A stretch of DNA of 9,318 nt from a bacterium (GTDB lineage Bacteria > Verrucomicrobiota > Verrucomicrobiia > Limisphaerales > J093), in assembly GCA_021784265.1 (NCBI GenBank), contig JAJXTA010000066.1:1-9318 (forward strand). Reading direction: 5' to 3'. The notes beneath the pieces were generated by a model. The model searched no databases and was not told where the DNA came from. It was given only the letters and a program-made list of their open reading frames with translations. Made by a program: the position numbers and the translations under genes. Positions 1 through 9,165 of the stretch are shown here, piece after piece; within the stretch, counting starts at the first letter, position 1; each line of letters begins with the position of its first letter.

Positions 1-195
1 GCCGATACTCGACGGAGCGCGCAACAATGCCCTGGGCCAAATGGGGCGCGACCCCAAGGGCGGCAGGTCTCTTGCGGCCAGGCTTCGTTGCTCGCGCCTT
101 ATGGCCCACCGGCGGGTACGCTCGTCGCGCGCGCCTCGTCTGGCCGAAAAGCCCCTGGCCGCGAGCGTCATCGCATTTATGAATTGGGGCGCTAA
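1..195 (+). other. Possible 3' end of an upstream gene (frame unresolved)
   Basis: Nothing here was recognised as a known protein. All three forward frames are open from the left edge. Frame 1 runs 64 codons to a TAA at 193-195 and would overlap the next gene by 17 bases. Frame 3 ends in a TGA at 180-182 that forms an ATGA overlap with the ATG at 179, a common arrangement for coupled genes. Frame 2 is continuous with the FAD gene and has the most G/C at third positions, so a longer N-terminus for that gene cannot be excluded. Its residues there are arginine-rich and low in hydrophobic content, which argues against it. The likeliest reading is that an upstream gene on the same strand ends here and is co-transcribed with the FAD oxidoreductase. 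Which of frames 1 and 3 is real cannot be decided from the window. Confidence 0.3.
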
Positions 196-1225
196 AGCCA
201 TCACCATCGTCGGGGGCGGCCTGGCCGGCCTGACCCTTGGGATCGGCCTGCGTCAACGTGGGGTCTCCACCGTCGTCATCGAGGCGGGGAGCTATCCCCG
301 GCACCGGGTCTGTGGCGAGTTCATCAGCGGGCGGGGTTTGGCGGTGCTGGACGGGTTGGGGCTGCGCGATCGGTTGCTCGAAGCGGGGGCGCGGCCGGCG
401 CGGTCCGTGCGGTTCTTCACCCCACGGCGCGCCTCACCGCTTTGCCGCCTGCCCCAGCCCGCCCTGGCTCTCTCGCGCTACAGGCTCGACGCCTTGTTGG
501 CGGCGGAATTCACCCGGGCGGGTGGCGCACTGCGCACGCAGACACGCTGGACCACCCCGGTGTTCGGGCCAGGCGTCGTACGCGCCACCGGGCGGCGGCC
601 GCGACCGGTCGAAGGCGGGCGGCGCTGGTTCGGTCTCCGGGTGCATGCGCGGCACGTCTCTTTGACCGCGGACCTGGAGATGCACCTGACCCCGCAAGGG
701 TACGTGGGCCTGTGCCAGTTGGCCGGTGAGGTTGTCAATGTCTGCGGCTTGTTCTGGGCGCGCCCACCGAGGGCCCACCCGACCCCAGCCAGCCCGCACT
801 GGTTGCGCGGTGAACCTGGGTCACCGCTGCACCAGCGGCTCGAGGAGGCCGAGTTCCTGCCGGATTCGTTCCGCTCGGTCGCGGGTCTCTCGCTCCGCCC
901 GCGCTACGCCCGGGAACGCGAGGAGGTCTGTGTGGGTGACGCTCTGACCATGATCCCACCGGTGACGGGCAACGGGATGTCGCTGGCGTTTGAATCCGCC
1001 GCCCTCGCCGCTCCGTCGTTAGCGCGGTTCACCACGGGCGCGTTGGATTGGGAGGGCGTCCGCCGCCAGACCGCGGAGAATTGTGACACAGCGTTGGCGC
1101 GGCGGCTCGCCTGGGCGTGGTGGTTGCAGCGCGCCCTGTCCCACCCCAGCCTGGCGGCGCTGGTAGCAACGCTGGTCCCGCGGGTGCCCCTGCTCTGGCC
1201 AGTGCTTTTCGCCCGCACGCGGTGA
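179..1225 (+). CDS. FAD-dependent oxidoreductase, geranylgeranyl reductase-like
   Basis: This is a 348-residue flavoprotein of the PHBH/geranylgeranyl reductase fold. Residues 8-35 form the FAD-binding Rossmann unit, with the GGGLAG glycine motif at 12-17 and the ribose-binding Glu35 ending strand 2. An R-x-x-CGE segment follows at 43-47, resembling the cysteine-containing signature of geranylgeranyl reductases and related tailoring enzymes. The second FAD motif, VGDA...PPVTGNGMSLA, lies at 252-270. The C-terminus is hydrophobic and rich in Trp, Leu and Pro (311-345), suggesting a lipid-like substrate or membrane association. The ATG at 179 was chosen because it lies seven codons before the Rossmann strand; in-frame ATGs at 41 and 101 would add Arg-rich residues with no family match. 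No Shine-Dalgarno sequence is visible. Family members saturate isoprenoid double bonds or modify polyketides and lipids. The substrate here is unknown and no pathway partner is in view. Confidence 0.85.
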   Translation: MNWGAKAITIVGGGLAGLTLGIGLRQRGVSTVVIEAGSYPRHRVCGEFISGRGLAVLDGLGLRDRLLEAGARPARSVRFFTPRRASPLCRLPQPALALSRYRLDALLAAEFTRAGGALRTQTRWTTPVFGPGVVRATGRRPRPVEGGRRWFGLRVHARHVSLTADLEMHLTPQGYVGLCQLAGEVVNVCGLFWARPPRAHPTPASPHWLRGEPGSPLHQRLEEAEFLPDSFRSVAGLSLRPRYAREREEVCVGDALTMIPPVTGNGMSLAFESAALAAPSLARFTTGALDWEGVRRQTAENCDTALARRLAWAWWLQRALSHPSLAALVATLVPRVPLLWPVLFARTR

Positions 1226-1315
1226 GCCCCGGAGGTGGGGAAGCACGGCGGGCGTTCCGGCCGAGGATTTGGCTCGACGCCACCGGGCCGAGCGGCCTTC
1301 AATGGCCACGCTCCT

Positions 1316-4012
1316 ATGAAGCTGCCTGCCCTCCGCGGCCTCACGCTCGCCGGTCTCGCCTTCGGGTTGAGCGCCGCCACCCCCGCGCCCACCACCGGCG
1401 TGATCAGCAACGCCACCTTCACCCTGAGGGTCCAGGTTCAGGCCGGGACGGTGACGGCGACCTTGGAGGATCACCTCGCCGCCCGCCGCCTCGCCGACGG
1501 CCCCGCTCTGTACCGGGCCGTCCGCGTCGCCGCCGCTAGCACGGAGGAGTGCCGCGGACTCCAAGACCCGGTGGTGACAACGGCTGGGCCGGCGCTGACC
1601 ATCGTCGGCCGGCTTGCCGGGCTGGAGTTGGAAGACCACGTTGTGCTGCCGCCCCGCCAAAGGATGATGGAAGAGCGCGTGGTGGTGCGCAATCAGACCG
1701 GGCGCATGATCGCGCTGTCGGATTTCGAAGCGGGGCTGGAGCGGCGGGTAGCCGATACCACCGGCCAAGTCATGGCGGGTTTGGCGGAAGACCGCTGGGT
1801 GGCCGTCCCGCTGCGGGTCCGGGCCAGCGATCCGCAAGGTTTTGTCAACGACTTCTCCCTCCCCGAGCTGCTCACGCAGCCGGGCTATGAACCGTGGGTG
1901 GACAAGGACCAGCAGTACTCGCAGGTCCCCTCCCGGCACCGCCGTTCCGAAGGCTGGGCCTGGACCCACCGCGACGCGACCCTCGGGATCTTCACCTTCA
2001 GCCAGGAAAACATGCTCTTCAGCGTGGTCTCGACCGAGAAGCGAACCGACGGGACCTGGCTGCGGTTTGGCGGGGTGTGCATGCTCTCGGGCGAACCGGC
2101 CGCCTTGACGCGCGTCGCCCCGGGACAAACCGTGGACCTGGGCGTCGTTCGCTACCAAGCCCTCGAGGGAGGTTACCCGGCAGCCATGCAGGCCTTCCGG
2201 GACATGCTTGACGAGAAGGGCTGCCGGTTTCCGCCCGGCTACAATCCCCCGGTGCATTGGGAGCAGCTTTACGACATGCCCGAGGCCTGGACCGACCGCC
2301 CACACCGGTACACCAAAGCCATCCTCGAACGGGAGGCGCAAAAGGGCCGCGCGTACGGCTGCCAGGCGCTCTATCTGGACCCGGGCTGGGATACCGACTT
2401 CGGCACGTTCCTGTGGGGCGAGCGCTGGCTGGGGCCGCGGCGTCCGTTCCTCGAGGAGATGCGGAGGCGATATGATTTGGCGGTTTCGCTCCACTGCCCG
2501 CTGGCGACCTGGATGTCCCACCAGTATAGCTGGGGCCTGGGGGCGGTAAAGAGCTGGCCACCGAGCGCCGCGCGGCTGGCGCCCACCCCACCCGCCGATG
2601 ACGCAAGCCGCTGGCAGGTGCCCGCCATTCGGACCGGCCGGCGCAATCTCGCCTTGCAGCCCGGCGCCGGTGCCAACGCCTCCTCGGTGTTCATGGGCGG
2701 GGCCATGGCGATTCACCAAATTGCCCACCTCAACGACGGTTGGTATGGCAACACCGCCAGTTGGATTGCCGGCGCAATGCCCGCCTGGGCGGAAATCGAC
2801 CTCGGCCAAGTCTGCCAGATCGGCGAGGTGCGCGTCGGTAACGACCACACCCAGCATTATACCGATCGGGCGGCGACGGCCCTGCGCGTGATGGTGGCGA
2901 CGCGCTACAACGCCGCTTCGACCGCCCCGACCTGGCACACGGTGGCGGAAAGCACCGGCCGGCCGCTCCAGGCCGAACAGACCTTCACCTTTGCCCCGCA
3001 CGCGGCCCGCTGGGTGCGCGTCGAGCTGCGCCAAGCCGGCCCGGACTTGCCGCGCCTGGACGAGCTCGAGGTCTATGAAGCCACGCCCGCTTCCGCGACC
3101 ACGGCCACGGCGTACGCCCGGCGCGCCCGGCGCGGTGCTCCACCGCCGGCGGCCACCGCCAAGCTCGGTCCGCTGGTCTGCCTCGGTTCACGCCAATATC
3201 GGGAGGGAGCCGCTCGCCGGCTCGAGGCCAACTGCGCCGACGGCGCGGTCTTCCTGATGTACGACGGGAATTGGTGGAACGGCGGCTGCCAAGCCCCCAA
3301 CCACGGCCACCCGATCCCCTACCGCTACGAGGACCACATCCGGGCCAACCTGGATTTGGTGCAACGGGTGCACCAACAGTTTCCCAAGGTCTTGATCGAG
3401 CTGCATGACCCGCTGGCGGGCGGCAGTCCCGCCCGCATGACGCCGGTCTATTACAAGTACGGCCTGCCAGGCAGTTACGATGAGAACTGGGGGTTCGAAC
3501 TCATGTGGGACCCGATGGCCGACCTGCGGCAAGGCCGGGCCCGTGCGCTCTACTACTATAATCTCGGATGTAACATCCCCCTCTACCTGCATATCCGGCT
3601 GACGGAGGACACGGCCAGTTGCGTGGTGCTCTGGTGGTACGCCTCGACCTGCCGGCACCTGGGGATTGGCGGGGTGTGCCCCCAGCCGGCTGTGGCGGCG
3701 GCCCAGCAGCGGGCCATGCGGCGCTACCGGGAGCTGGAAGCGTTCTACCAACGAGGCGAGTTCTACGGCCTGGACGAGGCCATCCACGTGCACGTCCTGC
3801 CCGCCAAAGGCGCGTTCGTGGTGAACGTGTTCAATTTGTCGGACCAGCCCCGGACCATCGGCGGCGCCATCGACCTGGACCGGCTCGGCCTGGAGCGGCA
3901 ACGCGCGTATCAGTCCTCCGCGCCCTGGGGGACGGTCGAGAAGGGGGCGTTGGTGGTGCGCCAGCCCTTGGCTCCATGGTCGGCCGACGTGGCGGAGTTT
4001 CACGCGCGCTGA
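1316..4012 (+). CDS. Secreted glycoside hydrolase-like protein with internal F5/8 type C (discoidin) domain
   Basis: The 898-residue product starts with a signal peptide: basic residues Lys2 and Arg7, hydrophobic stretch 9-20, and a small-residue cleavage region near 19-24. This supports the ATG at 1316 over the in-frame ATG at 1235. Residues 30-310 resemble the beta-rich N-terminal domain of alpha-galactosidase-type enzymes. A barrel-like catalytic region begins at ~315, with YLDPGWDTD at 353-361 and strand LAVSLHCPLATW at 388-399. Residues 442-588 look like a discoidin carbohydrate-binding module, beginning NLALQPGA, with AEIDLGQ at 492-498 and ending RWVRVELR...LDELEVYE. The barrel seems to resume at ~618, with strand VFLMYDGNWW at 645-654, whose Asp650 sits where GH36-like enzymes have a nucleophile, and VLIELHDP at 692-699. 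A beta-sandwich-like C-terminus follows from ~820. The substrate is probably a plant or algal polysaccharide or a glycoside, but the exact GH family was not identified. No Shine-Dalgarno sequence was found. Confidence 0.75.
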   Translation: MKLPALRGLTLAGLAFGLSAATPAPTTGVISNATFTLRVQVQAGTVTATLEDHLAARRLADGPALYRAVRVAAASTEECRGLQDPVVTTAGPALTIVGRLAGLELEDHVVLPPRQRMMEERVVVRNQTGRMIALSDFEAGLERRVADTTGQVMAGLAEDRWVAVPLRVRASDPQGFVNDFSLPELLTQPGYEPWVDKDQQYSQVPSRHRRSEGWAWTHRDATLGIFTFSQENMLFSVVSTEKRTDGTWLRFGGVCMLSGEPAALTRVAPGQTVDLGVVRYQALEGGYPAAMQAFRDMLDEKGCRFPPGYNPPVHWEQLYDMPEAWTDRPHRYTKAILEREAQKGRAYGCQALYLDPGWDTDFGTFLWGERWLGPRRPFLEEMRRRYDLAVSLHCPLATWMSHQYSWGLGAVKSWPPSAARLAPTPPADDASRWQVPAIRTGRRNLALQPGAGANASSVFMGGAMAIHQIAHLNDGWYGNTASWIAGAMPAWAEIDLGQVCQIGEVRVGNDHTQHYTDRAATALRVMVATRYNAASTAPTWHTVAESTGRPLQAEQTFTFAPHAARWVRVELRQAGPDLPRLDELEVYEATPASATTATAYARRARRGAPPPAATAKLGPLVCLGSRQYREGAARRLEANCADGAVFLMYDGNWWNGGCQAPNHGHPIPYRYEDHIRANLDLVQRVHQQFPKVLIELHDPLAGGSPARMTPVYYKYGLPGSYDENWGFELMWDPMADLRQGRARALYYYNLGCNIPLYLHIRLTEDTASCVVLWWYASTCRHLGIGGVCPQPAVAAAQQRAMRRYRELEAFYQRGEFYGLDEAIHVHVLPAKGAFVVNVFNLSDQPRTIGGAIDLDRLGLERQRAYQSSAPWGTVEKGALVVRQPLAPWSADVAEFHAR

Positions 4013-4083: not shown

Positions 4084-5475
4084 TTAGAACCCGAGATTAT
4101 CCGCCTTCGGCATGAGGCTCATCAGGTAATCCACCAAGTCGGCCAACTCGCCTTCGGCGATGCGCCCGCGCCAGGCCGGCATGTAGAGGGGCGGATGGGG
4201 CTTGGCGGGGTCGAGGGAGGGAATCTCCCGCTGCCCGTCGAGGATCCGTTTCTTGAGCTCGTCTTTGGTGTACCCGGCCGCGACATGGATGAGACTGGGG
4301 ACCTGCTGGGCGGTCTTGGCATTGGGATTGGGGATGCCGCCCACCCCACCGGCGCCGTGGCAACCGGCGCAACCATACTTCTGAAACACGGTTTTTCCGC
4401 GCGCTACCGAGGTCATCAGCGCGGGAATCTTCATAAAGCCCACGACATTCGTGTCGGTCACCGAGAGGAGGAATTCGGTCAAGGACCGGATCTCCTGCTC
4501 GGTGAAATTGAACTGGGGCATGACGGAACCGGGGGTGACGGCCTGGGGATTGCGGAAGTGGGCGACAATCCAATCGGGGCTGCGGCGTTTGCCCACGCCA
4601 TCGAGGGCGGGCCCGACCTTGCCGCCCTGGCCGCCGATGCTGTGACAACCGATGCAGCCCTTTTCCTGGAAGAGACGGCGCCCGGCCAATTGGCCGGGAA
4701 TGCTCTTCATCGAGACGTAGTAGGCGCTCATTTCCTCGCCGGTGAAACTGAGCACATAGAGCGTCAAGGCGTCCAGGTCGGCGTCGCTGGCCTGGATCGG
4801 CGGCATGCCGGACCCGGGGCTGACCGCCGCCGGATTCTTGAAATGCTTCATCAGCCATTCCGGGCTGTGACTGGCACCCACCTTGTCCAACTCCGGCCCG
4901 ATCATGCCGCCCACCCCGTTGAGCTTATGACAGCCGATGCAACCGACCTCCTCGAACACGGCCCGGCCCCGGGCCAGCTTGGGGGCGTTGGGGATGTCGG
5001 AGGCCAGATGACACTTCCCGCAGGCCGACTCGATGTACTTCATCGGCAACATCGGCTGATCCCAATGGGGCACCTGGCCGTGGGCGGCCTCGCGGGTGGT
5101 CGCGCGCCCCTGGCCTTGGTGACAGATGGTGCAGCCGAATTTATCGAAGGGATGCTGGTCGTGGTTGGGATGATAGGCCAGGGGTTGCGGGAAACCGCTG
5201 TAGCTGGGGTCATCGACCGCCGCATGACAAGTAATGCAGCGATCAACCCGGTTCAGCCCCGGCAGGACGAGCTGGTGAATCTCGACCGGGATGCGGGCCG
5301 CCTCGGCGCGGGCTTCCGGGGTGTTGGCGCGGGCCAATTCCTGCTTGCGGAACACCTGTTGCCAGCTCCGCCATTCACGAAACTGATCCTTGTAGTAGGC
5401 GACGATCACCAGCCCGCCCACCAGCAGGCCCAGCACGGCAAACCAGGGATAATAGCGGCGCAGCGACGTGTCCAT
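4084..5475 (-). CDS. Membrane-anchored hexaheme cytochrome c of a Rieske/cytochrome b complex
   Basis: The 463-residue protein has an N-terminal membrane anchor (residues 11-27) and six CXXCH heme c sites with cysteines starting at 80, 115, 152, 179, 274 and 369. The first three sites lie in a His-rich region (H102, H105, H108, H132, H137 are possible second ligands) unlike a class I cytochrome. The last three sites sit in tandem class I-type domains spaced exactly 95 residues apart. Domains 4 and 5 share SPEWLMKHF/SPDWIVAHF and GSGMPP/GSVMPQ, giving likely axial Met224 and Met319; domain 6 has YMPAW with Met432. The gene is last in the operon, six bases after cytochrome b, so it probably takes the place of cytochrome c1 or f. 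It would receive electrons from the Rieske cluster on the outer face of the membrane and pass them to periplasmic acceptors. The terminal acceptor is unknown. No clear Shine-Dalgarno sequence precedes the ATG, suggesting translational coupling. Confidence 0.93.
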   Translation of the reverse strand: MDTSLRRYYPWFAVLGLLVGGLVIVAYYKDQFREWRSWQQVFRKQELARANTPEARAEAARIPVEIHQLVLPGLNRVDRCITCHAAVDDPSYSGFPQPLAYHPNHDQHPFDKFGCTICHQGQGRATTREAAHGQVPHWDQPMLPMKYIESACGKCHLASDIPNAPKLARGRAVFEEVGCIGCHKLNGVGGMIGPELDKVGASHSPEWLMKHFKNPAAVSPGSGMPPIQASDADLDALTLYVLSFTGEEMSAYYVSMKSIPGQLAGRRLFQEKGCIGCHSIGGQGGKVGPALDGVGKRRSPDWIVAHFRNPQAVTPGSVMPQFNFTEQEIRSLTEFLLSVTDTNVVGFMKIPALMTSVARGKTVFQKYGCAGCHGAGGVGGIPNPNAKTAQQVPSLIHVAAGYTKDELKKRILDGQREIPSLDPAKPHPPLYMPAWRGRIAEGELADLVDYLMSLMPKADNLGF

Positions 5476-5481
5476 GAGCGA

Positions 5482-6759
5482 TCAATGAAACGCTTGTTCT
5501 TCCGCCGGGATGGGCTTCCAGGGGACTTGGAAGCTCCAGTTCGGGCCCCGGAACAGGCTGCCGATGGTGGTGAACACCACCGCGGCGATAAGGCAAACGG
5601 TGAAGAGGGTGAGCGCGACCTTGCGCTCGCGGGCAAACCAGACGCCCAGCCCCCGCCGGCGGCGGTCCAGGTAGGGTAGCAGGACCAAGGCCGTAACCAA
5701 CAGCCCCGGGACGACCACCCCGCCCCACAGGGCCGAGTACGCCACCAGCTCCTGGAGGCCGAGGAAATACCAGGGGGCCTTGGCGGGGTTGGGCGGGTGG
5801 ACGCGGTTGGCCAATTCCTCCAGCGGGGCATTCCAGAAAATGGCCAGCACCAGCACCACCGCCACGACGGCCAGAAACAAGAGGAGCTCGCGGAAGATCA
5901 GATTGGGCCACGTGAACACCACGTCCTCCGGGGCCAACCCGACCGCCGGGGTGCTCCCCCGCGCCAGTTCCATCAGGCCGTACGTCTTGCTCGTGGGCAG
6001 TTGGCCGGGTGCCAACTCCTGCTGGACAAACGCCGGTTCGTCCGGCCGCGCCAACCCTCCGTCCTTGCGCACCCGCCACAGGTGCAGCGCCACCAGCATG
6101 AGGACGACGCCCGGCAGGACAATCACGTGCAGCGTGTAGAACCGGATCAAGGCGGACTCGCCCACCATGTGGCCGCCGAGCAGGAGGAATTTCAGCTTCT
6201 GCCCCACCAGGGGAGCATAGCCGGCGATGTTGGTGCCGACCGTGATCGCCCAGTAGGCCAACTGGTCCCAGGGCAACAGGTAGCCGGTGAAGGACAAGCC
6301 CAGGGTCAGCAGCAGCAGGACTACCCCAACCACCCAGTTGAACTCCCGCGGCGGTTTGTAGGCGCCGGTATAGAACACGCGGCACAAGTGCAACAGGACG
6401 AAGACCACCATCAGGTGGGCCGACCAGCGGTGCATGTTACGCAGCACCCGGCCGGCGGTGACCACGAACTCGAGGTCCTTCATGTTCTGATAGGCCGCGT
6501 CCGTGGCGGGGACATAATAAAACATGAGCATTACCCCCGTCACCCCCAGGATGAGGAACAGATAGAGGGAAATGAGCCCCAGCCCGAAGGTCGTGCTCGG
6601 CTTCAGGGTCCGCTTGTGCACCTTGGCGGGCTGGAGGTGCAGCAGGAAACTGGAGATGGCCACCTGGGCCCGCTCCAGGTTGCTGGCGGGCAAGCCCACG
6701 CGGAAAATCGAACGCCCGACCCGCGAGGCGCGAAACGCATTCCAAACACGCTGCAGCAT
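5482..6759 (-). CDS. Cytochrome b (fused b6 and subunit IV type) of a Rieske/cytochrome b complex
   Basis: This 425-residue integral membrane protein carries the two b hemes and the quinone sites of a bc-type complex. Seven hydrophobic helices can be seen at roughly 58-82, 113-131, 142-161, 207-229, 289-309, 342-362 and 380-402. That equals the four helices of cytochrome b6 plus the three of subunit IV in one chain, joined by a ~55-residue polar linker (231-286). Heme ligands are His110/His124 in helix B and His211/His226 in helix D. The spacings of 14 and 15 match cytochrome b6 rather than the mitochondrial 14/14. TGYLLPWDQ at 158-166 is the conserved helix C end. The Qo-site motif reads APWY at 328-331 instead of PEWY. 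No Cys occurs in the first 50 residues, so the covalent heme ci of b6f is not expected. It starts one base after the Rieske stop codon and shares its transcript. Confidence 0.96.
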
Positions 6760-6760
6760 A

Positions 6761-7231
6761 TTAGATCACCAGGTATTTCTTGGCCTCGACCGGCTGGGAG
6801 GCGTCGATGATCAGGCGCCCGTCCCGGCTCAGGCTGACCAGCAACCAAGAGAGCGGGCGGGGCGCCGGCCCGCTGGTCACTTCGCCGTTGTCGCTGAACT
6901 GGCTGCCATGACAGGGACAGTGGAAACCATGACCATCGGCGCCGCGGTTGACCGTGCAGCCCAGATGGGTGCAGATGGCCGAGACCGCCCGGAAGCTGTT
7001 CCCCTTGCGAATCAGGAACACCCGGATGTCGGACAGGAAGGTGGTCCCCTCGGGATAATCCTCCGGCTTCTGCCCCTTGAAGCGTTGGTCCGGTTCGTAT
7101 AGGACGTTCGGAACAATATAGCGCGCCCCGGCCACAGCCGAGGCGCCCAGCGCGAAGAGGGCGGAACACCAGCCAAAGGCCAGTTGCATGAAATCCCGCC
7201 GTTTGACTTGGGTGGGGTCGGAGTCGTTCAT
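6761..7231 (-). CDS. Rieske [2Fe-2S] iron-sulfur protein with Tat signal/anchor
   Basis: The 156-residue protein has the Rieske cluster motifs C87-T-H-L-G-C92 and C105-P-C-H-G-S110. Cluster ligands are C87, H89, C105 and H108, and C92/C107 form the usual disulfide. A twin-arginine motif (KRRDFMQ, 10-16) precedes a hydrophobic segment (17-38), as in Rieske proteins exported folded and kept as a membrane anchor. The ATG at 7231 is chosen because it puts the twin-arginine motif near the N-terminus; an in-frame ATG at 7315 would overlap the upstream gene and add 28 unrelated residues. Ser110 next to the cluster is kept, but the Tyr two residues later in high-potential Rieske proteins is Phe112. 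This suggests a lowered potential and would fit menaquinone, which is inference. At 156 residues it is of compact bacterial size. Its role is to take the first electron from quinol at the Qo site. Confidence 0.95.
6765..6770 (-). promoter_or_regulatory. Ribosome binding site for cytochrome b
   Basis: On the minus strand GGTGAT lies five bases before the cytochrome b ATG, inside the last codons of the Rieske gene. It is the only reasonable Shine-Dalgarno-like match in the operon. The other starts have none that I can see. Its overlap with the Rieske 3' end and the single-base gap between the genes point to coupled translation. Confidence 0.45.
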
Positions 7232-7242
7232 GGTTAGGGAGT

Positions 7243-9165
7243 TCAGGCCGGCACCGTCTCGACGCGTTCCATGGTCACGGCCCCGGTGGGGCAGCGGACG
7301 GCACAGAGCCCGCAACGAATGCAGCGGGTCTCGTCTTTGAGGATCGCCCCCTGTTGGCCCGGGGCGGGAACCTTGCCGTAGCGGGCCACAAAGGCCGCCT
7401 GCAACCGGTCGTCCCCGCGCAATCGGGCGCTATCGACCAGACGCAGGCACGATTCGGGGCAGATGTCCGCGCACCCGCCACACAAGACGCAGAGGTCGCC
7501 GTCGAAGACCGGCCCGACGTGACACTTGAGGCAGCGCGTGGCCTGGAGGAGCGCCCCAGGCTCGGGATAGGCCCTTTCCACCTCGGCGATGCCGATCCGC
7601 CGGTCCACCGGCACCATCGGCGGCGTCCGCCGCGGCAGGGTCTCATAACCCGGGACCATGCGATATTGGTCGGTGGCATAGCGGGTGACCCGCACTTTGC
7701 GTGGCTGTTCCGGCTCGCGGCCGGTGAGGTACTTGACCATGGAGCGAGCGGCCCGCTGGCCCTCGGCGACCGCCGTGATAATGATGCGCGGCCCGAAGGC
7801 CACGTCGCCCCCGGCGAACACGTCCGGGCGGGAGGTGGCGAACGTGGCGGGGTCGGTCTGGAGCCCACCCCGGGGGGTGAGACGGAGATTGTCCTCGGGC
7901 CGGATCCAGGACAGGTCGGCGGTTTGCCCCACGGCGAGCACTACGGTGTCGCAGTCCACAGTCTCTTCGCTCCCCTCGATGAACAGGGGGTTGAAGCGGC
8001 GGTTCTCGTCAAAGACGCGGCTGCACTTGATCAACTGCATCCCGGTCACCTTGCCGTCCCGCCCGACCACCCGTTTGGGTCCCCAGCGGGTGTGCAACTT
8101 GATCCCCTCGTGGCCGGCTTCCTCGATCTCCTCGCGGGCCGCGGGAATCTCATCGAGGTTCTCCAAGCAATACATGTGGACTTCCGGGACCCCCTTGCGG
8201 ATCGCCTCGCGGGCAACGTCCAGCGCCAAGCGGACCTCGTCGGGCGGCTCGCCTTCCCCCATGGTCAACTCTTCCAAGGCCGCAGTCGCGGAGCGCAAGG
8301 CCCCCCGCAACTCCGTCTCAGTCATCTGGGCGAAACGCTCGGTCTGCCGGATCACGGAGCGGGCGACATCGAACGCCACGTTGCCCCCGCCAATCACGAC
8401 CACCTTGCGGCCGAGCGTGACGCGGAATCCCAGATTCACGTTGAGCAGGAACTCGATGGCCCGGAGCACCCCGTCCAGGCCCACGCCTTCGATAGCCAGC
8501 TCCCGGCTTTTATGGGCGCCGATGCCCAGGAAGACCGCCTCGTAGCCTTGGCGCTTGAGGTCGGCCAAGCCGTAGTCCCGCCCCAATCGCTGATTGTAGC
8601 GGAGGGTGACTCCCAGCGATTCGATGGCCCGGACTTCCGCCTCGATGATCTCGCGCGGCAGCCGGTACTCCGGCACCCCGAGGACCAGCATCCCGCCCGC
8701 CACGCTCTGCGCTTCGAACACGGTGACGGCGAAGCCCTGCAAGGCCAGCTCGTGGGCACAGGAAAGGCCCGCCGGGCCAGCACCCACGACCGCGACTTTG
8801 CGTCCCGCCCCGAGCCGGGCGCGCTGAGTGTCCCGCCAACCGGGATAGACCCGCCCCAGATCAAAATCTTCGGACTCGACGCCAAAGCGTTCGCAGACAA
8901 AGCGCTTCAAGGCGCGAATCGACACCGCCGCATCCAAGGCCCCGCGCCGGCACTTGGCCTCGCAGGGGGCGGCACATACCCGGCCGCAAATCGAAGCGAA
9001 AGGGTTGGGGGTGCGGGCGATGATATAGGCCTCCTCATAGCGGCCAGCAGCGATGGCTTGCACGTAACCGCCGGAGTCCGTCCGCACCGGGCACCCCTCG
9101 CGACAGAGCACCTGCCGCTCGAAGTAGCGGACGTCGGGGATCTCAATGGGATAAGGTCGTGGCAT
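7243..9165 (-). CDS. NAD(P)-binding FAD/[4Fe-4S] oxidoreductase, GltD-like, with C-terminal 2[4Fe-4S] ferredoxin domain
   Basis: The 640-residue soluble protein belongs to the glutamate synthase small subunit/NfnB-like family. The N-terminal helical domain (about 15-95) has cysteines 21, 25, 60, 64, 68 and 72 in the pattern CREGCP...CGRVCAAPCEAKC, typical of its FeS clusters. The FAD Rossmann motif VVGAGPAG is at 126-133, the NAD(P) Rossmann motif VVIGGGNVAFD at 256-266, and the closing FAD motif DVFAGGDVAFGPR at 448-460. The C-terminus holds a bacterial ferredoxin domain with CVLCGGCADICP (559-570) and CIRCGLCAVRCP (615-626). An extra ~50-residue helical, charged insertion follows the NAD(P) helix (about 275-328). 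The arginine pair that reads the NADPH 2'-phosphate in GltD is replaced by Leu334-Glu335, which favours NADH (inference). No membrane segment or signal is present, so it is cytoplasmic. As the first gene of the operon it probably docks on the inner face of the Rieske/cytochrome b complex and links it to the pyridine nucleotide pool. No glutamate synthase large subunit is in the window. Confidence 0.9.
   Translation of the reverse strand: MPRPYPIEIPDVRYFERQVLCREGCPVRTDSGGYVQAIAAGRYEEAYIIARTPNPFASICGRVCAAPCEAKCRRGALDAAVSIRALKRFVCERFGVESEDFDLGRVYPGWRDTQRARLGAGRKVAVVGAGPAGLSCAHELALQGFAVTVFEAQSVAGGMLVLGVPEYRLPREIIEAEVRAIESLGVTLRYNQRLGRDYGLADLKRQGYEAVFLGIGAHKSRELAIEGVGLDGVLRAIEFLLNVNLGFRVTLGRKVVVIGGGNVAFDVARSVIRQTERFAQMTETELRGALRSATAALEELTMGEGEPPDEVRLALDVAREAIRKGVPEVHMYCLENLDEIPAAREEIEEAGHEGIKLHTRWGPKRVVGRDGKVTGMQLIKCSRVFDENRRFNPLFIEGSEETVDCDTVVLAVGQTADLSWIRPEDNLRLTPRGGLQTDPATFATSRPDVFAGGDVAFGPRIIITAVAEGQRAARSMVKYLTGREPEQPRKVRVTRYATDQYRMVPGYETLPRRTPPMVPVDRRIGIAEVERAYPEPGALLQATRCLKCHVGPVFDGDLCVLCGGCADICPESCLRLVDSARLRGDDRLQAAFVARYGKVPAPGQQGAILKDETRCIRCGLCAVRCPTGAVTMERVETVPA

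What the first reader, a model, noticed from the sequence alone, without database searches (positions are those of the whole stretch)
4084..9165. Rieske/cytochrome b operon with its own cytoplasmic NAD(P)/FAD/FeS subunit: candidate quinone-linked NAD(P) oxidoreductase
Seen directly: four minus-strand genes with gaps of 11, 1 and 6 bases, in the order GltD-like flavo-FeS protein, Rieske protein, cytochrome b, hexaheme cytochrome c. Known: canonical bc1 and b6f complexes have no pyridine-nucleotide subunit. Related Rieske/cytochrome b clusters with NAD(P)-oxidoreductase subunits have been noted in anammox planctomycetes, where quinol bifurcation to NAD(P)+ was proposed. Inference: one electron per quinol goes up to the Rieske protein and hexaheme cytochrome, while the low-potential b-heme branch exchanges electrons with the cytoplasmic FeS/flavin module, making or using NAD(P)H. 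This would be a bc complex turned into a bifurcating dehydrogenase.
Basis: partly seen in the sequence, partly recalled or inferred. Interest (0 to 1): 0.78.

Follow-up and report, generated by a model that had tools for sequence, protein, structure and literature searches.

The report
Cytochrome bc complex with built-in NAD-module
Four adjacent bacterial genes encode the parts of a cytochrome bc-type respiratory complex plus an NAD-type flavin/iron-sulfur protein; together they are predicted to split the electrons of menaquinol so that one branch would make NADH, as was proposed for two anammox complexes, and the same gene set recurs in genomes labelled as 19 bacterial phyla.

Summary
In detail: on the minus strand GltD-like, Rieske, cytochrome b and hexaheme cytochrome c genes follow each other with gaps of 11, 1 and 6 bases. 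The set is conserved: of 80 loci fetched by cytochrome b similarity, 76 have the GltD-like gene adjacent, 1 has it nearby, 3 are cut off; they carry 19 phylum names. GltD and cytochrome b diverge together (Mantel r 0.89). Complexes with a putative NAD(P) oxidoreductase, and the NAD(P)H-making bifurcation idea, are published for anammox Kuenenia (PMC12954380), so the kind is known. The window belongs to a different, wide branch: cytochrome b is one fused protein, lacks the cysteine for heme cN, has KAPWYF in place of PEWY, and its flavoprotein has Leu-Glu where Nfn/GltD enzymes have Arg-Arg, so NAD(H) is predicted. Module-type cytochromes b share a histidine (H41) that may match the ligand of a proposed interface heme, but it also occurs where no GltD gene is near. 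The direction of electron flow is not shown. Strict linkage fails outside the fused branch: many related split complexes lack the gene nearby, and two fused loci of one genus do too.

The parts
7243..9165 (-). GltD-like flavo/FeS subunit, 640 aa (predicted cytoplasmic NAD(H) module)
8140..8169 (-). CLENLDEIPA in the NAD domain: Leu-Glu where Nfn/GltD have Arg-Arg
8767..8784 (-). GAGPAG, FAD-binding motif
8374..8391 (-). GGGNVA, pyridine-nucleotide domain motif
9088..9105 (-). CREGCP, N-terminal FeS cysteines
8950..8988 (-). CGRVCAAPCEAKC, N-terminal FeS cysteines
7522..7536 (-). RCLKC, cysteine pair that is N-terminal in NfnL and lies after the NAD domain here
7459..7491 (-). CVLCGGCADIC, C-terminal 4Fe-4S motif
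7291..7323 (-). CIRCGLCAVRC, C-terminal 4Fe-4S motif
6761..7231 (-). Rieske [2Fe-2S] protein, 156 aa, RRDF near the N-terminus (twin-arginine-like)
6896..6919 (-). CPCHGSQF, cluster ligands with the Ser kept and Tyr replaced by Phe
5482..6759 (-). Cytochrome b, 425 aa, b6 and subunit-IV parts in one chain
6637..6639 (-). His41 of cytochrome b, invariant in the clade; candidate ligand of an interface heme
6583..6585 (-). Gly59, at the place of b6f Cys35 (heme cN attachment): cysteine absent
6055..6075 (-). RVRKDGG after helix D, clade signature
5764..5781 (-). KAPWYF in place of the PEWY quinol-site motif
4084..5475 (-). Hexaheme c-type cytochrome with a hydrophobic N-terminal stretch, 463 aa

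Best explanation
The four genes encode a cytochrome bc-type core and an NAD-type flavo-iron-sulfur protein that likely form one complex, which would oxidise menaquinol by electron bifurcation and make NADH. Shown by sequence: the four proteins, their cofactor motifs, the two heme b histidine pairs, and conservation as a gene unit. Inferred: at the outer quinol site one electron goes to the Rieske cluster and the hexaheme cytochrome c, then to a high-potential acceptor; the other goes through hemes bP and bN, perhaps an interface heme held by His41, into the FeS chain of the GltD-like subunit and over FAD to NAD+. Two quinols would give one NADH. With -70 mV for menaquinone and -320 mV for NAD, the acceptor must lie above about +180 mV, and higher still against a membrane potential.
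Against: No experiment and no multimer model; complex formation and direction are not shown. H41, RxRKDG and KAPWYF also occur where no GltD gene is near (L183-L186 and 12 split loci), so they do not mark the module. Missing heme cN cysteine against GltD gene: Fisher p 7.7e-6, but only 2 independent pairs on the tree, so no support. Three fused proteins have a Cys one column earlier. In the window's Verrucomicrobia group no NarG or NapA gene was seen beside the operon (one NarH-type cluster member, L039), so its acceptor is unknown. The Rieske Tyr is Phe (69 of 79), usually a lower potential. Nothing seen forbids quinone reduction at the inner site. An NAD(H) pocket fits NADH oxidation as well.
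Confidence: 0.47

Rival explanations
1. The module is an entry, not an exit: NADH would reduce the FeS chain and heme bN, and menaquinone would be reduced at the inner site; the rest of the complex then runs as an ordinary bc complex, giving an NADH:cytochrome c oxidoreductase (compare FNR feeding b6f, recalled).
For: Downhill in energy; the NAD(H)-type pocket suits catabolic NADH; nothing tested excludes an inner quinone site.
Against: 25 of 25 genomes checked carry an NADH_4Fe-4S gene typical of complex I, and 18 of 20 a NuoD-type match (none found in G071 and G074), a better coupled route; Hauser et al. argue the same for Kuenenia.
Confidence: 0.28
2. The core is an ordinary Q-cycle bc complex; the GltD-like protein is co-expressed but works apart, for example on a soluble ferredoxin or another substrate.
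For: Close kin without a nearby GltD gene keep the core signatures; unlinked GltD-like paralogues exist.
Against: 76 of 80 adjacent, mostly in the same order, co-divergence r 0.888, a pocket change found in the linked proteins.
Confidence: 0.15
3. The GltD-like FAD itself bifurcates, as in Nfn, with a ferredoxin or flavodoxin as second partner, and the membrane part supplies or takes up the high-potential electron.
For: Closest folds are subunits of bifurcating transhydrogenases.
Against: No recurring soluble ferredoxin or second flavoprotein was recognised among the flanking clusters that I looked at (only representatives of the larger clusters were named); glutamate synthase and DPD share the fold without bifurcating (recalled).
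Confidence: 0.07

Closest known systems
Kuenenia stuttgartiensis Rieske/cytochrome b complexes Kustd1480-1485 and Kuste4569-4574 (PMC12954380; abstract, sections 3 and 13, part 1 of 2 of section 14, and passages seen)
   Same: Rieske protein, b6-like cytochrome b, multiheme (hexa/octa) cytochrome c and a putative NAD(P) oxidoreductase; proposed NAD(P)H-making bifurcation; a histidine of cytochrome b as ligand of a proposed interface heme.
   Different: There cytochrome b and subunit IV are separate, subunit IV is modelled with five helices and heme cN is modelled; here one fused chain with three long C-terminal helices in the model, no Cys for heme cN, and gene order GltD-Rieske-cytb-cytc.
Nitrospina gracilis / Kuenenia b6f-like operon with split cytochrome b and octaheme cytochrome c (PMC3578206, passages seen)
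   Same: b6f-like Rieske, cytochrome b and multiheme cytochrome c operon.
   Different: Split cytochrome b; the passages name no NAD-binding subunit. It resembles the split loci L196-L207 found here without a GltD gene nearby.
Cytochrome b6f / bc1
   Same: Rieske fold, cytochrome b with two heme b histidine pairs, fold match.
   Different: No pyridine-nucleotide subunit (recalled); PEWY or PDWY in the 26 other rows with the region; no His at column 41 in 29 other rows, most of them gapped there; b6f has heme cN.
NfnABC / StnABC subunit A and NfnL/GltD (9bov, 9n5u, 8oh5, 4ylf, 5jca)
   Same: FAD and pyridine-nucleotide domains, RCLxC pair, FeS clusters; same domain order as NfnABC-A.
   Different: Leu-Glu for Arg-Arg in the pocket; the operon partner is a bc complex.
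ExtP/ExtQ of the selenite/tellurite reduction operon (NCBIfam)
   Same: b-type cytochrome related in sequence: ExtP 279.1 bits (cut-off 290), ExtQ 78.2 (cut-off 150).
   Different: Below both cut-offs; two separate families there.

Membership tests
NAD(P)-oxidoreductase-bearing Rieske/cytochrome b complexes (Kuenenia type) | Rieske + b6-like cytochrome b + multiheme cytochrome c + NAD(P)-oxidoreductase-like gene in one cluster | tested here: met
NAD(P)-oxidoreductase-bearing Rieske/cytochrome b complexes (Kuenenia type) | Separate cytochrome b6 and subunit IV | tested here: not met
   one 425-aa chain; 73 of 80 relatives fused
NAD(P)-oxidoreductase-bearing Rieske/cytochrome b complexes (Kuenenia type) | Heme cN attachment cysteine | tested here: not met
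   Gly59 at b6f Cys35
NAD(P)-oxidoreductase-bearing Rieske/cytochrome b complexes (Kuenenia type) | Five helices in the subunit-IV part | tested here: not met
   AlphaFold2 model shows three long helices after residue 280; longer tails occur in other fused members
NAD(P)-oxidoreductase-bearing Rieske/cytochrome b complexes (Kuenenia type) | Histidine ligand of the interface heme (His43/His62) | tested here: inconclusive
   H41 in 86 of 86 rows (83 distinct relatives once the window's own two rows and one duplicate are dropped), 0 of 29 others, 21 of them gapped; Kuenenia chains were not at hand, and the spacing to the Arg (204 there; 190 in the window, 190-215 in kin) does not settle which of two nearby His it is
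NAD(P)-oxidoreductase-bearing Rieske/cytochrome b complexes (Kuenenia type) | Subunits form one complex; NAD(P)H made from quinol | not testable with these tools
   needs purification and assay
Canonical bc1/b6f complex | PEWY motif at the quinol oxidation site | tested here: not met
   KAPWYF in 78 and KAAWYF in 1 of 79 rows with the region; PEWY 23 and PDWY 3 of 26 other rows
Canonical bc1/b6f complex | Two pairs of heme b histidines | tested here: met
   H110/H124, H211/H226 in 86 of 86 rows
NADPH-type GltD/NfnL | Arg-Arg of the NADPH 2'-phosphate pocket (role recalled) | tested here: not met
   Leu-Glu in the window; Glu335 in 71 of 75 linked proteins
ExtP (NCBIfam NF040969) | Score at or above the curated cut-off 290 | tested here: not met
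   279.1 bits

The most novel reading that the evidence does not exclude
A bc complex turned NAD+ reductase is not an anammox oddity but a major respiratory machine of some 19 phyla: its fused branch has no heme cN, has an NAD(H)-type flavoprotein fixed as a subunit, and in many members sits beside periplasmic nitrate-type molybdenum reductases that would pull the high-potential electron, so nitrate or another strong oxidant would pay for NADH made straight from menaquinol, without complex I running backwards.
Probability: 0.32. Interest if true: 0.87.

Novelty: new variant of a known kind. Interest (0 to 1): 0.6.

Why it matters
If true, many anaerobes and facultative soil and groundwater bacteria have a second way to make NADH from the quinone pool, driven by a strong oxidant rather than by the proton gradient. 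It would change energy budgets drawn from genomes, where such operons are easily counted as plain complex III, and it gives the untested anammox proposal many simpler, non-anammox test cases (fused cytochrome b, no heme cN).

Tried and rejected
Glutamate synthase: rejected, the protein has two C-terminal ferredoxin motifs, scores below the gltA and gltD-family cut-offs and sits with a bc operon. Arg512/Arg523/Arg544 as docking marks: rejected as diagnostic, since unlinked paralogues mostly carry them too. Heme cN loss as a correlate of the GltD gene: raw association strong, no phylogenetic support. Looking for Kuenenia itself: 23 genomes of the class of L111 and the 120 proteins listed of 7986 found gave no chain with the Kuenenia spacing of 204 between the histidine and the Arg. 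The 466-aa CxxCH protein upstream in 12 loci recalls Cyc2-like cytochrome-porins (recalled); no Pfam or NCBIfam hit, left open. Loci with the other kind of cytochrome b (L127, L128, L133-L138, L141-L144) were not used in linkage counts. FeS-to-heme distance: not computed, the tools fold single chains only. Literature: searches (I saw titles and abstract starts, at most 20 each) listed no paper on an NAD-module bc complex outside anammox; the Nitrospina paper (PMC3578206, passages) describes a split octaheme operon shared with Kuenenia. Dibrova 2017 and Kao and Hunte 2014 were looked up and are not held; ten Brink 2013 and Kartal 2013 were seen only as citations, so earlier mention there cannot be excluded.
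Full report
The window is a complete 9318-base contig of a 4.33-Mb, 870-contig MAG that is 75.6% complete. The Rieske start is the ATG at 7231; one search lists an earlier TTG at 7315 that would overlap the GltD-like gene.

Conservation. Counting a GltD hit above 200 bits on the same strand within 1.5 kb of cytochrome b as adjacent, 76 have it, 1 has it within 15 kb (L044), 3 are cut off (L034, L049, L092) and 0 lack it with room. The 77 linked loci carry 19 phylum names in their record titles, 9 loci have none, and 10 of the 19 phyla rest on a single MAG contig each. These loci were chosen by similarity to the window, so I took a second sample: 288 Verrucomicrobiota genomes, the own one among them; 19 have a match at E 1e-50, 16 with the module-type cytochrome b. 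Of the 19 module-type loci examined (own contig left out), 14 have the GltD gene adjacent, 1 nearby (L170) and 4 lack it: L183/L184 (fused, one genus) and L185/L186 (split). Some repeat the first sample, judged by equal contig lengths (G164, G382, G315, G158). G285 and G192, the genomes of L183/L184, hold a GltD-like gene elsewhere, with a YRR pocket in the one read (L188). In 23 genomes of the class of L111, 12 split loci (L196-L207; 8 with an octaheme cytochrome c in view) have no GltD gene in the fetched stretch, 7 with room by my judgement; L209 and L210 have it adjacent and L208 about 2 kb before the Rieske gene. So the gene is nearly fixed in the fused branch, present in part of the split branch and missing in much of it. 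On the tree, linkage changes three times over 105 rows with known state.

Clade signatures. In an alignment of 86 module-type rows (83 distinct relatives; two rows are the window and one pair is identical) and 29 other cytochromes b, H41, R229, K232, D233 and G234 are in 86 of 86; H41, R229 and D233 are in 0 of 29, but 21 of those 29 are gapped at column 41. PEWY is replaced by KAPWYF (78) or KAAWYF (1) in 79 rows that hold the region; the others have PEWY (23) or PDWY (3) of 26. On a quick tree thinned from 156 to 67 rows the set is one side of a branch with SH-aLRT 99. Hauser et al. predict a new heme b at the cytochrome b dimer interface, held by His43 of Kuste4571 or His62 of Kustd1481, with an Arg 204 residues later and an Arg of the reductase nearby. 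H41 and the RxRKDG segment are candidates for the same site, but I could not fetch the Kuenenia chains, and spacing differs (190 in the window, 190-215 in kin). H41 also stands in loci without a GltD gene nearby, so it marks the clade, not the module.

Heme cN and the pocket. In b6f, Cys35 holds heme cN (recalled); the window has Gly59 there (alignment). None of 73 fused proteins has a Cys in that column, against 5 of 7 split ones and 12 of 13 split loci not counting repeats; three fused proteins (L062, L092, L108) have one a column earlier. Hauser et al. saw a high heme cN potential and inner-site quinone reduction as problems for NAD(P)H production; in this branch that heme is missing. The tie between its absence and the GltD gene is strong in raw counts (with gene: 6 Cys, 89 none; without: 7 Cys, 3 none; Fisher p 7.7e-6) but rests on two independent pairs, so it proves nothing. 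In the NAD domain, the five solved relatives shown carry Arg-Arg before the EMPA-like turn, and 7 of 8 unlinked paralogues carry YRR; 71 of 75 linked proteins have Glu335, 68 of them as Leu-Glu. The exceptions are L055, L058, and the split L071 and L107 with YRR; the split operon of L170 also has YRR. From recalled knowledge Arg-Arg binds the NADPH phosphate and an acidic residue there favours NAD(H). On a quick GltD tree (99 rows thinned to 55) L071 and L107 fall outside with unlinked paralogues while the Glu335 proteins stay in one part, with L055 inside and L058 at its edge; distances of GltD and cytochrome b agree (Mantel r 0.888, 75 loci, 0 of 999). Shared ancestry alone gives part of that.

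Surroundings in relatives. Clustering of flanking ORFs finds a NarG/type-II DMSO-reductase-like Mo enzyme in 25 of 80 loci, an FeS subunit of NarH type in 19, a NarJ-like chaperone in 10 and a NapA-like enzyme in 9. Names rest on one representative per cluster; only the NarH-type one passes a cut-off (TIGR03478, 492 against 480.7). Flanks are often cut, so these are lower bounds, and the largest cluster (28 loci) looks like an antisense-frame artefact. The Mo enzymes lie almost always beside fused members with a long tail. The Verrucomicrobia group of the window instead often has a monoheme cytochrome c, a porin-like protein or a PocR/AraC regulator nearby, and one NarH-type cluster member (L039). 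Genomes checked: 25 of 25 have NADH_4Fe-4S matches and 25 of 25 COX1 matches, 24 above the COX1 cut-off; NuoD-type matches in 18 of 20, none in G071 and G074 (the own genome was not in that set); futalosine pathway in 17 of 25 including the own genome, MenD domain in 5 others, neither in 3.

How it would work. With -70 mV for menaquinone and -320 mV for NAD (both as given in PMC12954380), one electron up and one down balances at an acceptor of +180 mV; a membrane potential raises this, because the low-potential electron moves to the negative side. Cytochrome c at about +250 mV (recalled) leaves little room; nitrate at about +420 mV (recalled) leaves more, which fits the Mo-enzyme neighbours of many relatives. 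Running the module as an NADH entry is easier in energy and stays the main rival; against it stands a complex I-type gene in each genome checked.

Known or new. The kind is known: Kartal et al. proposed it (seen as cited) and Hauser et al. 2025 measured the two Kuenenia Rieske proteins at +303 and +335 mV and modelled the complexes. Eight literature searches listed no NAD-module bc complex outside anammox, but key papers are not held; a split octaheme operon shared by Nitrospina and Kuenenia is in print (PMC3578206). The window belongs to a distinct architecture that fails three features of the Kuenenia complexes, so I call it a new variant of a known kind.

Noticed in passing
window 1235-4012 (+): 925-aa ORF convergent to the operon with an F5/F8 type C-like galactose-binding domain; no sign of a link to the complex.
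   Followed up: no
window 2-1225 (+): FAD-dependent oxidoreductase resembling the geranylgeranyl reductase family, open at the contig end.
   Followed up: no
G000:C388 (L002, L114): A second Rieske/cytochrome b pair in the same genome, cytochrome b 44% identical to the window's over residues 63-208 and cut by the contig end.
   Followed up: partly
L169 and L170 (G369:C27): One contig carries a fused operon with a Glu-type GltD directly beside a split operon whose own GltD-like gene has the YRR motif.
   Followed up: partly
L188-L195: Unlinked GltD-like paralogues, 7 of 8 with YRR pockets, in relatives' genomes; partners unknown.
   Followed up: partly
L103:680-2077 and kin in 12 loci: 466-aa protein with one CxxCH near its start and no Pfam or NCBIfam match, mostly encoded upstream of the GltD gene.
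   Followed up: partly
window 8191-8340 (-), GltD residues 276-325: A 50-residue insert in the NAD domain of the window and close relatives, low model confidence; shorter in others.
   Followed up: no
L185:57-1850: A COX1 gene lies two genes after a split octaheme Rieske/cytochrome b operon that has no GltD gene nearby.
   Followed up: no
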